37,284 bases of DNA from positions 1 through 37,284 of the forward strand of contig NZ_JAUSPQ010000002.1 in the NCBI RefSeq assembly GCF_030655665.1, written 5' to 3'. Origin of the DNA: Methanocorpusculum sp. Lineage in GTDB: Archaea; Halobacteriota; Methanomicrobia; Methanomicrobiales; Methanocorpusculaceae. The position numbers and the translations under genes were made by a program. Shown here one piece after another: positions 32,119 to 32,859 of the stretch. The notes under the pieces were generated by a model that made no database searches, had not been told where the DNA came from, and saw nothing but the letters and a program-made list of their open reading frames with translations. Every line of letters starts with the position of its first letter. The first letter of the stretch is position 1.

Positions 32119-32859
32119 TTACATGAATAATAACCCTGACATCCAGTAGATGATTACCAGGAAGGCAATGATACCTGCTACAAGTCCGTAGAGGATACCG
32201 ATGTCACGGCCAATTTTTCTTCCGACACGCATTGCAATTTCTGCGTCCGTGAACTCAATCTTTTGCTCGATTGCATCAAGACGTTTCTCGATTTCGAGGA
32301 ACTGGGGGTTGGCACTTGCAACCGATGCAGCACCGCCTGAACCACCAGCGTCTTCAGTTAACTGAATGACGATCGGGTCTGCGCCAAATGCTCCAGGATC
32401 TCGTGCCTTGAGCTCGTTCATTTTTGCGGAGATTTTACCGATGTCTTCGGTCTCCATAATATTTACGAGTTCGATCTGTTCCTGGAAACGTTTGATGTGT
32501 TCTGCCGTCAGGTTCTCAAGGAACGGAATCGCACCGGTAGAACCGACGATCTTTCCGCCCTCAACACCATTTTTGTGCATTGCTTCGATGGACTGACCGG
32601 AAAGGTGACCCTTAACTTCAGTTCCACAAAGCAGAACAAACCGGATGTTTGGGTTTGAAATGACGTTTGCAACGACCTTTTCGATACCGAGGTTTTCAGT
32701 CTTACAGGAACCTGCAAGAGCTGCACCTGCAGCACAGATTCCGGCCTCATCAAGGTGGGAACCCATAGTGATAACAGCGACTGGGCTGTTTGCATCACCG
32801 GTTTGGTAATCACCCTGAATGATTGGCCATCCGCTTGCCGGGGATTTCTTGTCTGCCAT
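32119..32859 (-). CDS. mtrG: MtrA domain-MtrG fusion protein (second MtrA corrinoid domain fused to MtrG)
   Basis: This 246-residue protein occupies the mtrG slot. Residues 1-168 are a copy of the MtrA soluble domain, identical to the neighbouring MtrA except at position 41 (Ile for Leu), and include the corrinoid ligand His85 in EVKGHLSGQS. A Gly/Ala/Ser linker (DAGGSGGAASVASANPQ) leads into about 60 residues of MtrG: FLEIEKRLDAIEQKIEFTDA, EIAMRVGRKIGRDIGILYGL and a C-terminal TM helix. Normal MtrG is a short single-helix subunit without a corrinoid domain. The ATG at 32857-32859 follows a perfect GGAGGTG, which is itself shared with the mtrA copy. The first 15-20 residues of canonical MtrG seem to be replaced. 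The family assignment of both halves is clear; the functional consequence is inference. Confidence 0.92.
   Translation of the reverse strand: MADKKSPASGWPIIQGDYQTGDANSPVAVITMGSHLDEAGICAAGAALAGSCKTENLGIEKVVANVISNPNIRFVLLCGTEVKGHLSGQSIEAMHKNGVEGGKIVGSTGAIPFLENLTAEHIKRFQEQIELVNIMETEDIGKISAKMNELKARDPGAFGADPIVIQLTEDAGGSGGAASVASANPQFLEIEKRLDAIEQKIEFTDAEIAMRVGRKIGRDIGILYGLVAGIIAFLVIIYWMSGLLFM

What the first reader, a model, noticed from the sequence alone, without database searches (positions are those of the whole stretch)
32119..32859. A second MtrA corrinoid domain is fused in frame to MtrG
The mtrG position encodes a 246-residue protein. Residues 1-168 copy the MtrA soluble domain (167 of 168 residues identical, corrinoid-ligand His85 retained), and a Gly/Ala/Ser linker joins them to MtrG with its TM helix. 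Mtr is known to have one corrinoid subunit type, MtrA. Here the complex could carry two corrinoid domains on different anchors, which could change methyl-transfer stoichiometry or kinetics. I cannot tell whether this has been described before.
Basis: partly seen in the sequence, partly recalled or inferred. Interest (0 to 1): 0.9.

Follow-up and report, generated by a model that had tools for sequence, protein, structure and literature searches.

The report
Second corrinoid arm fused to MtrG
A methane-producing archaeon carries a second copy of the vitamin-B12-binding part of its methyltransferase pump, fused to another subunit (MtrG) of the same pump; the fusion is real but has been in print for this order of archaea since 2009, and it would likely give each unit of the pump two methyl-carrying arms instead of one.

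Summary
Window 32119-32859 (-) encodes 246 residues: a complete MtrA corrinoid domain, 167 of 168 residues identical to the neighbouring MtrA, then a Gly/Ala/Ser linker and MtrG. In the order, 127 of 135 genomes (at least 90% complete) have MtrG, one copy each; its frame is 200 aa or longer in 101. I looked at 51 of those 101, and all have MtrA sequence directly upstream. None of 54 MtrG-bearing genomes outside the order has a frame long enough for a fusion. The idea of 'one corrinoid subunit type, perhaps undescribed' fails: Anderson et al. 2009 reported A and G fused in Methanomicrobiales, and Wang et al. 2015 named it mtrA-2b and inferred gene conversion. I add: cobalt-ligand His85 and Glu55 kept in 86 of 86 domains, low dN/dS, a mosaic of converted segments in the window (both directions), one tract apparently overrunning into mtrF, and no internal start that would release MtrG. 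Likely function, untested: a second methyl-shuttling arm, six corrinoid domains per trimer. Boldest open reading: the extra arm serves the second, outward-facing MtrH site.

The parts
32119..32859 (-). mtrA-2b: MtrA corrinoid domain fused to MtrG, 246 aa (whole CDS)
32356..32859 (-). MtrA-2 soluble corrinoid domain, residues 1-168; His85 cobalt ligand, Glu55, meander GAIPFLEN 109-116
   Evidence: PF04208 residues 4-172; 167/168 identical to MtrA-1; conservation; predicted fold matches 5l8x and 5laa
32311..32355 (-). Gly/Ala/Ser linker, about residues 169-183
   Evidence: sequence; pLDDT below 50 for residues 170-188
32122..32310 (-). MtrG part, residues about 184-246, one long predicted helix
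   Evidence: PF04210 residues 184-237; aligns to solved MtrG 9qtq_S and 8q3v_G; helix 185-245
33060..33797 (-). mtrA-1, canonical MtrA with its own C-terminal anchor, 245 aa; inferred partner in gene conversion
32861..33058 (-). mtrF, 65 aa; its last codons look overwritten by a conversion tract carrying the mtrB/mtrA-1 junction (inferred)
   Evidence: PF09472; comparison with genus relatives
33799..34095 (-). mtrB
   Evidence: PF05440
34113..34958 (-). mtrC
   Evidence: PF04211
34969..35838 (-). mtrD
   Evidence: PF04207
35834..36721 (-). mtrE
   Evidence: PF04206
31086..32105 (-). mtrH
   Evidence: PF02007

Best explanation
The gene is a known second copy of the MtrA corrinoid domain fused in frame to the stalk subunit MtrG, and it would likely act as a second methyl-carrying arm on the Mtr sodium pump, kept close to MtrA by probable gene conversion. 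Shown: the fusion, its operon position (E-D-C-B-A-F-[A-G]-H), its spread through the order, conservation of the cobalt-ligand residues, low dN/dS, mosaic identity with mtrA-1. Inferred: the domain binds cobamide; MtrG, for which no second gene was found, brings one extra corrinoid domain into each protomer (six per trimer); the flexible linker lets that domain shuttle between MtrH (methyl uptake) and the MtrCDE cavity (methyl delivery to coenzyme M, coupled to Na+ export), in parallel with MtrA-1.
For: Both domains pass the Pfam cut-offs. MtrG is single-copy in 127 of 127 MtrG-positive genomes of the order; its frame is at least 200 aa in 101, and 51 of these 101 (50 fetched loci and the window) were looked at and all have MtrA sequence directly upstream. 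In 43 of 43 intact loci the order is A-1, F, A-2/G. His85, Glu55, Asn56 and His35 are kept in 86 of 86 domains. dN/dS of the A-2 domain is 0.00-0.17 in 11 pairs that I chose (A-1: 0.03-0.45). The paralogue is closer than the best same-type orthologue of the set in 35 of 43 genomes. Window mosaic. The model matches solved MtrA (5l8x, TMt 0.94) and is a long helix over the MtrG part with a low-confidence linker. Papers: N-termini of the stalk subunits are cytoplasmic and the corrinoid domain is proposed to shuttle on a disordered linker (PMC10998594, passages); A and G fused with no other G (PMC2686161, passage); both mtrA paralogues essential according to Sarmiento 2013 as cited in PMC4632066 (original not seen).
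Against: No protein-level or biochemical evidence for the fusion turned up in the six paper searches (listings of open-licence papers). The solved complexes (M. marburgensis, M. mazei) have one MtrA domain per protomer, so room for a second arm is unproven. The window pair is not a sister pair in the nucleotide tree (8 of 43 pairs are not), and against the near-identical strain L093 the orthologues are closer (493 of 504 nt) than the paralogues (484 of 504). The longest-identical-run test was not significant (P 0.34). Copying is not one-way: in nt 64-126 the window's A-1 is nearer to relatives' A-2. Six positions invariant in A-1 are changed in A-2 of one genome each.
Confidence: 0.75

Rival explanations
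1. The second domain is catalytically idle: it rides on MtrG, stays similar only because conversion between close repeats is frequent, and does not take part in methyl transfer.
For: Tandem near-identical repeats can convert readily (general knowledge). MtrG without a fused domain serves in the 54 MtrG-bearing genomes outside the order that were sampled (judged by frame length).
Against: Where the copies have drifted apart (L061, L062: paralogue dS 0.93 and 1.21) the A-2 domain still keeps His85 and Glu55, and A-2 of these two genomes differ with dN/dS 0.06. The linker stays within 15-18 residues in 43 of 43. A-F fusions arose separately in Methanococcales and, the paper argues, in Methanocella arvoryzae (PMC4632066).
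Confidence: 0.15
2. MtrG is released as a free short subunit by internal translation start or cleavage in the linker, so the complex keeps one corrinoid domain per protomer.
For: The linker has pLDDT below 50 and could be open to cleavage.
Against: In the window no in-frame ATG, GTG or TTG lies between residue 148 and the first residues of MtrG. Over the linker and MtrG start, 9 of 43 genomes have any such codon, 4 an ATG, and 1 a Shine-Dalgarno-like string before it. Cleavage was not testable.
Confidence: 0.07
3. The similarity comes from a recent duplication in each species, not from an old duplication with gene conversion.
For: High identity of tandem copies; Wang et al. 2015 say they cannot completely rule it out.
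Against: The same order and nearly the same linker occur in 43 of 43 intact loci, which would need the same complex event many times; the window has an A-2-specific island (nt 190-252) inside more homogenised sequence.
Confidence: 0.03
4. Assembly artefact.
For: Such repeats do break assemblies: 24 of the 26 short MtrG frames are cut at contig edges.
Against: Seen in single-contig genomes (for example G014, G016, G036) and in an independent assembly of a near-identical strain (L093).
Confidence: 0.01

Closest known systems
mtrA-2b of Methanomicrobiales (Wang et al. 2015, PMC4632066; A-G fusion noted in Anderson et al. 2009, PMC2686161)
   Same: MtrA domain without its own anchor, fused to MtrG, between mtrF and mtrH, very similar to mtrA-1, no other MtrG. 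Methanocorpusculum labreanum, of the window's genus, is in the 2015 set (figure legend).
   Different: Nothing in architecture. The mosaic segments and the overrun into mtrF are details of this strain and L093.
mtrA-2a of Methanococcales and Methanocella arvoryzae (PMC4632066)
   Same: Second MtrA domain fused to a single-helix stalk subunit, similar to mtrA-1.
   Different: Fused to MtrF instead of MtrG; separate origin inferred in the paper. Not examined here.
Mtr complex of Methanothermobacter marburgensis (8q3v) and Methanosarcina mazei (9qtq, 9qts)
   Same: Same subunit families; the MtrG part aligns with the solved MtrG chains.
   Different: One corrinoid domain per protomer; MtrG is a separate short chain (86 and 72 residues).

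Membership tests
mtrA-2b (MtrA-MtrG fusion of Methanomicrobiales) | N-terminal MtrA domain in frame with C-terminal MtrG | tested here: met
   PF04208 and PF04210 in one 246-aa frame
mtrA-2b (MtrA-MtrG fusion of Methanomicrobiales) | lacks MtrA's own C-terminal anchor; mtrA-1 retained upstream | tested here: met
   tails printed for 43 genomes; mtrA-1 at 33060-33797
mtrA-2b (MtrA-MtrG fusion of Methanomicrobiales) | located between mtrF and mtrH in mtrEDCBAFGH | tested here: met
   Pfam of the eight genes
mtrA-2b (MtrA-MtrG fusion of Methanomicrobiales) | MtrA domain homogenised with mtrA-1 (closer to it than to orthologues) | tested here: inconclusive
   Met in the 43-genome set: 96.0% nt within the window against at most 93.8% to a same-type orthologue, and mosaic segments. 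Not met in the tree (no sister pair) nor against the near-identical strain L093 (97.8%), which may have split off after the last conversion.
mtrA-2b (MtrA-MtrG fusion of Methanomicrobiales) | no separate MtrG | tested here: met
   one PF04210 match in G000 (assembly 98% complete)
functional corrinoid-binding MtrA | His cobalt ligand with Glu partner and meander loop | tested here: met
   H85, E55, G109-N116 against PMC4915002 passages
functional corrinoid-binding MtrA | binds cobamide and transfers methyl groups | not testable with these tools
   needs purified complex

The most novel reading that the evidence does not exclude
The second arm gives every MtrH active site its own carrier. Solved M. 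mazei Mtr has six MtrH (three dimers) but three MtrA domains, and one MtrH of each dimer faces away. Hanging a corrinoid domain on MtrG (or, separately, on MtrF in Methanococcales), whose N-termini join the MtrB sheet where MtrH docks, puts a second carrier beside the idle MtrH site, so the pump runs two carriers against one MtrCDE channel per protomer.
Probability: 0.2. Interest if true: 0.75.

Novelty: already known. Interest (0 to 1): 0.3.

Why it matters
Mtr is the sodium-pumping methyl-transfer step of methanogenesis. Orders in which the corrinoid domain is doubled are natural variants of the complex in which carrier number and coupling could be compared with single-arm Mtr, and the structures now available make the question testable. 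The sequence fact itself is not new.

Tried and rejected
One search compared the two genes one base out of register (wrong start taken for mtrA-1); its difference list is void and one search replaces it. Assembly artefact: rejected. Free MtrG inside the order: not found, but 26 of the 127 MtrG frames are shorter than 200 aa. Of these 26, 9 lie within 316 bases of a contig start by coordinates (not fetched) and 17 were fetched (10, 7). Of the 17, 15 run open to the contig edge; G119 meets a stop in a locus with 36 Ns and G103 has a frame break inside the A domain. MtrA sequence is seen upstream of MtrG in 13 of the 17; in the other 4 the contig ends within 61 bases. The other 50 of the 101 long frames were not opened. 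The 8 genomes without MtrG were not examined further. G052 (L085, 105 Ns) and G119 (L077) have broken A domains and were dropped from the set of intact loci. That set (42 of 60 loci fetched, plus the window) is my choice of mostly long-frame loci, not a random sample; the 18 dropped lack one or both complete A domains. Replacement of MtrG's N-terminal strand by the linker: Pfam matches start at profile position 5-11 inside the order (fragment G105 aside) and 1-6 outside, but the alignment to M. mazei MtrG starts at its residue 4, so loss of the strand is not established. One-way conversion from mtrA-1 to the fusion: not borne out over the whole domain. Paper searches listed no biochemical study of the fusion; only open-licence papers are held. 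What I saw of papers: PMC4632066, abstract and parts 1-4 of 6; PMC12774963, passages and section 8; PMC10998594, PMC4915002, PMC6053082, PMC2686161, passages; all others, listings only.

Full report
What is there. The frame at 32119-32859 (minus strand) is a true fusion: a complete MtrA soluble domain (PF04208, residues 4-172), a short Gly/Ala/Ser linker and MtrG (PF04210, residues 184-237). Against mtrA-1, two genes upstream, 167 of 168 residues and 484 of 504 nucleotides are identical; 19 of the 20 changes are synonymous. The operon is E-D-C-B-A-F-[A-G]-H on the minus strand, each gene identified by Pfam. The genome (1.81 Mb, 11 contigs, 98% complete) gave two MtrA-domain matches and one MtrG. 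Apart from L093 (filed under Bacilli, see below), the nearest named records are Methanocorpusculum (97% for M. parvum XII, 95% for UBA424), so the genus is very likely Methanocorpusculum.

Distribution. Of 135 genomes of the order at least 90% complete, 127 have MtrG, one match each, in 28 of 28 genera. In 101 of the 127 the open frame is 200 aa or longer. I looked at 51 of these 101 (50 fetched loci and the window), and all have MtrA sequence directly upstream on the same strand, one of them (L085) broken by Ns. The other 26 frames are shorter: 24 are cut at contig edges (15 seen in fetched loci, 9 by coordinates), one (G119) is broken in a locus with Ns and one (G103) by a frame break inside the A domain. 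Of the 17 short ones fetched, 13 show MtrA sequence upstream of MtrG. Eight genomes gave no MtrG and were not followed up. In a phylum sample of 146 genomes (at least 90% complete), 84 have MtrG: 30 of the order and 54 outside it. The 54 have frames of 67-127 aa, too short for the fusion.

Conservation. Of 60 loci fetched, plus the window, have two complete A domains, and these 43 all show A-1, F, A-2/G in that order. His85, Glu55, Asn56 and His35 are kept in 86 of 86 domains. In the meander, residues 109-117 are invariant except 112 (Ala in both copies of two genomes) and 114 (Ile or Leu). The roles of His84, Glu54 and the meander come from PMC4915002 (passages). Six positions are invariant in A-1 but changed in A-2, each in one genome (two of them in L069). 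The stretch from the end motif of the A domain to the (N/S)PQ(F/Y) start of MtrG is 15-18 residues in 43 of 43. dN/dS is 0.00-0.17 for A-2 and 0.03-0.45 for A-1 in 11 genome pairs that I chose. The window has no in-frame start codon after residue 147 that would release MtrG; over the linker and MtrG start 9 of 43 genomes have one, and 1 has a Shine-Dalgarno-like string before it.

Gene conversion. Within-genome A-1/A-2 identity averages 94.2% nt (43 genomes) against 74.4% between same-type orthologues. In 35 of 43 genomes the paralogue is closer than the best same-type orthologue, and 35 of 43 pairs (a slightly different set) are sisters in a FastTree tree. The window pair is not a sister pair, and L093, a near-identical strain outside that set, has closer orthologues (493 of 504 nt for both copies) than the window's own paralogue (484 of 504). 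Segment by segment, against L090, L052, L054 and L055: nt 190-252 of the window's A-2 differs by 1-3 from their A-2 and by 8-11 from their A-1, so it is an unconverted island. nt 1-63 of A-2 is nearer to their A-1 (4-6) than to their A-2 (8-9). nt 379-441 of A-2 differs by 1-2 from A-1 of L090 and L052 (but by 18-19 from A-1 of L054 and L055) and by 5-9 from their A-2. In nt 64-126 it is the window's A-1 that is nearer to their A-2 (3-5) than to their A-1 (5-10), the opposite direction; the remaining segments are unclear. The crowding of 11 third-position differences within 72 nt was reached in 0 of 5000 shuffles; the longest-run test was not significant (P 0.34). Just upstream of A-2 the window has nearly the sequence of its mtrB/mtrA-1 junction where those four relatives have another, and MtrF ends in GGV at 65 aa instead of 62 aa. 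L093 shares this upstream sequence, and L089 shows a similar state (GGL, 66 aa). I infer a tract from the mtrA-1 side that overran into mtrF before the window and L093 parted.

How it likely works. In solved Mtr the stalk is (ABFG)3 with N-termini on the cytoplasmic side, and the corrinoid domain of MtrA is proposed to move on a disordered linker between MtrH and the MtrCDE cavity (PMC10998594, passages). The fused domain is predicted to have the MtrA fold (5l8x TMt 0.94), followed by a linker with pLDDT under 50 (170-188) and one helix 185-245 that has its own weak stretch at 200-205 (21 sequences, mean pLDDT 75, pTM 0.62). It would therefore be a second arm of the same kind; this step is inferred. 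M. mazei Mtr has three MtrH dimers whose two active sites face opposite ways; the authors think the membrane-proximal MtrH serves MtrA and the distal one is unlikely to for steric reasons, though not excluded. The dimers dock on a sheet made by N-termini of MtrB, with MtrF and MtrG beside it (PMC12774963, section 8). This suggests, untested, that a carrier hung on MtrG could serve the distal MtrH; the steric doubt counts against it.

Known or not. Anderson et al. 2009 (PMC2686161, passage) state that A and G are fused in Methanomicrobiales, with a separate A and no other G. Wang et al. 2015 (PMC4632066, parts 1-4 of 6) name it mtrA-2b, report the parallel A-F fusion, and infer long-lasting gene conversion; a 2018 survey by phylogenomics repeats this (PMC6053082, passages). 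The finding is therefore already known. The functional consequence was not settled in any paper that the six searches listed, in so far as I read them.

Noticed in passing
L093 (JAQVAY010000069.1): A 3985-base contig filed under a 'Bacilli bacterium' MAG is 97.9% identical to the window's mtr operon over its whole length: very likely a misbinned Methanocorpusculum contig.
   Followed up: partly
window 32860-32875: The 3' end of mtrF and the start context of the fusion nearly repeat the mtrB/mtrA-1 junction; MtrF is three residues longer than in L090, L052, L054 and L055. L093 shares it.
   Followed up: partly
L077 (G119) and L085 (G052): A domains are broken in loci that hold runs of N (36 and 105): near-identical repeats apparently collapse in draft assemblies.
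   Followed up: partly
window 28362-28808: FmdE-family protein (PF02663) beside an IF-1A-family gene (28033-28350).
   Followed up: no
window 25929-27795: GntR-family regulator, ABC ATPase and ABC-2 membrane protein in a row on the minus strand.
   Followed up: no
window 28817-30970: 717-aa TPR protein encoded next after mtrH on the same strand.
   Followed up: no
window 33060-33797: The C-terminal part of MtrA-1 gives a weak match to the MtrF profile (E 0.033, below the curated cut-off).
   Followed up: no
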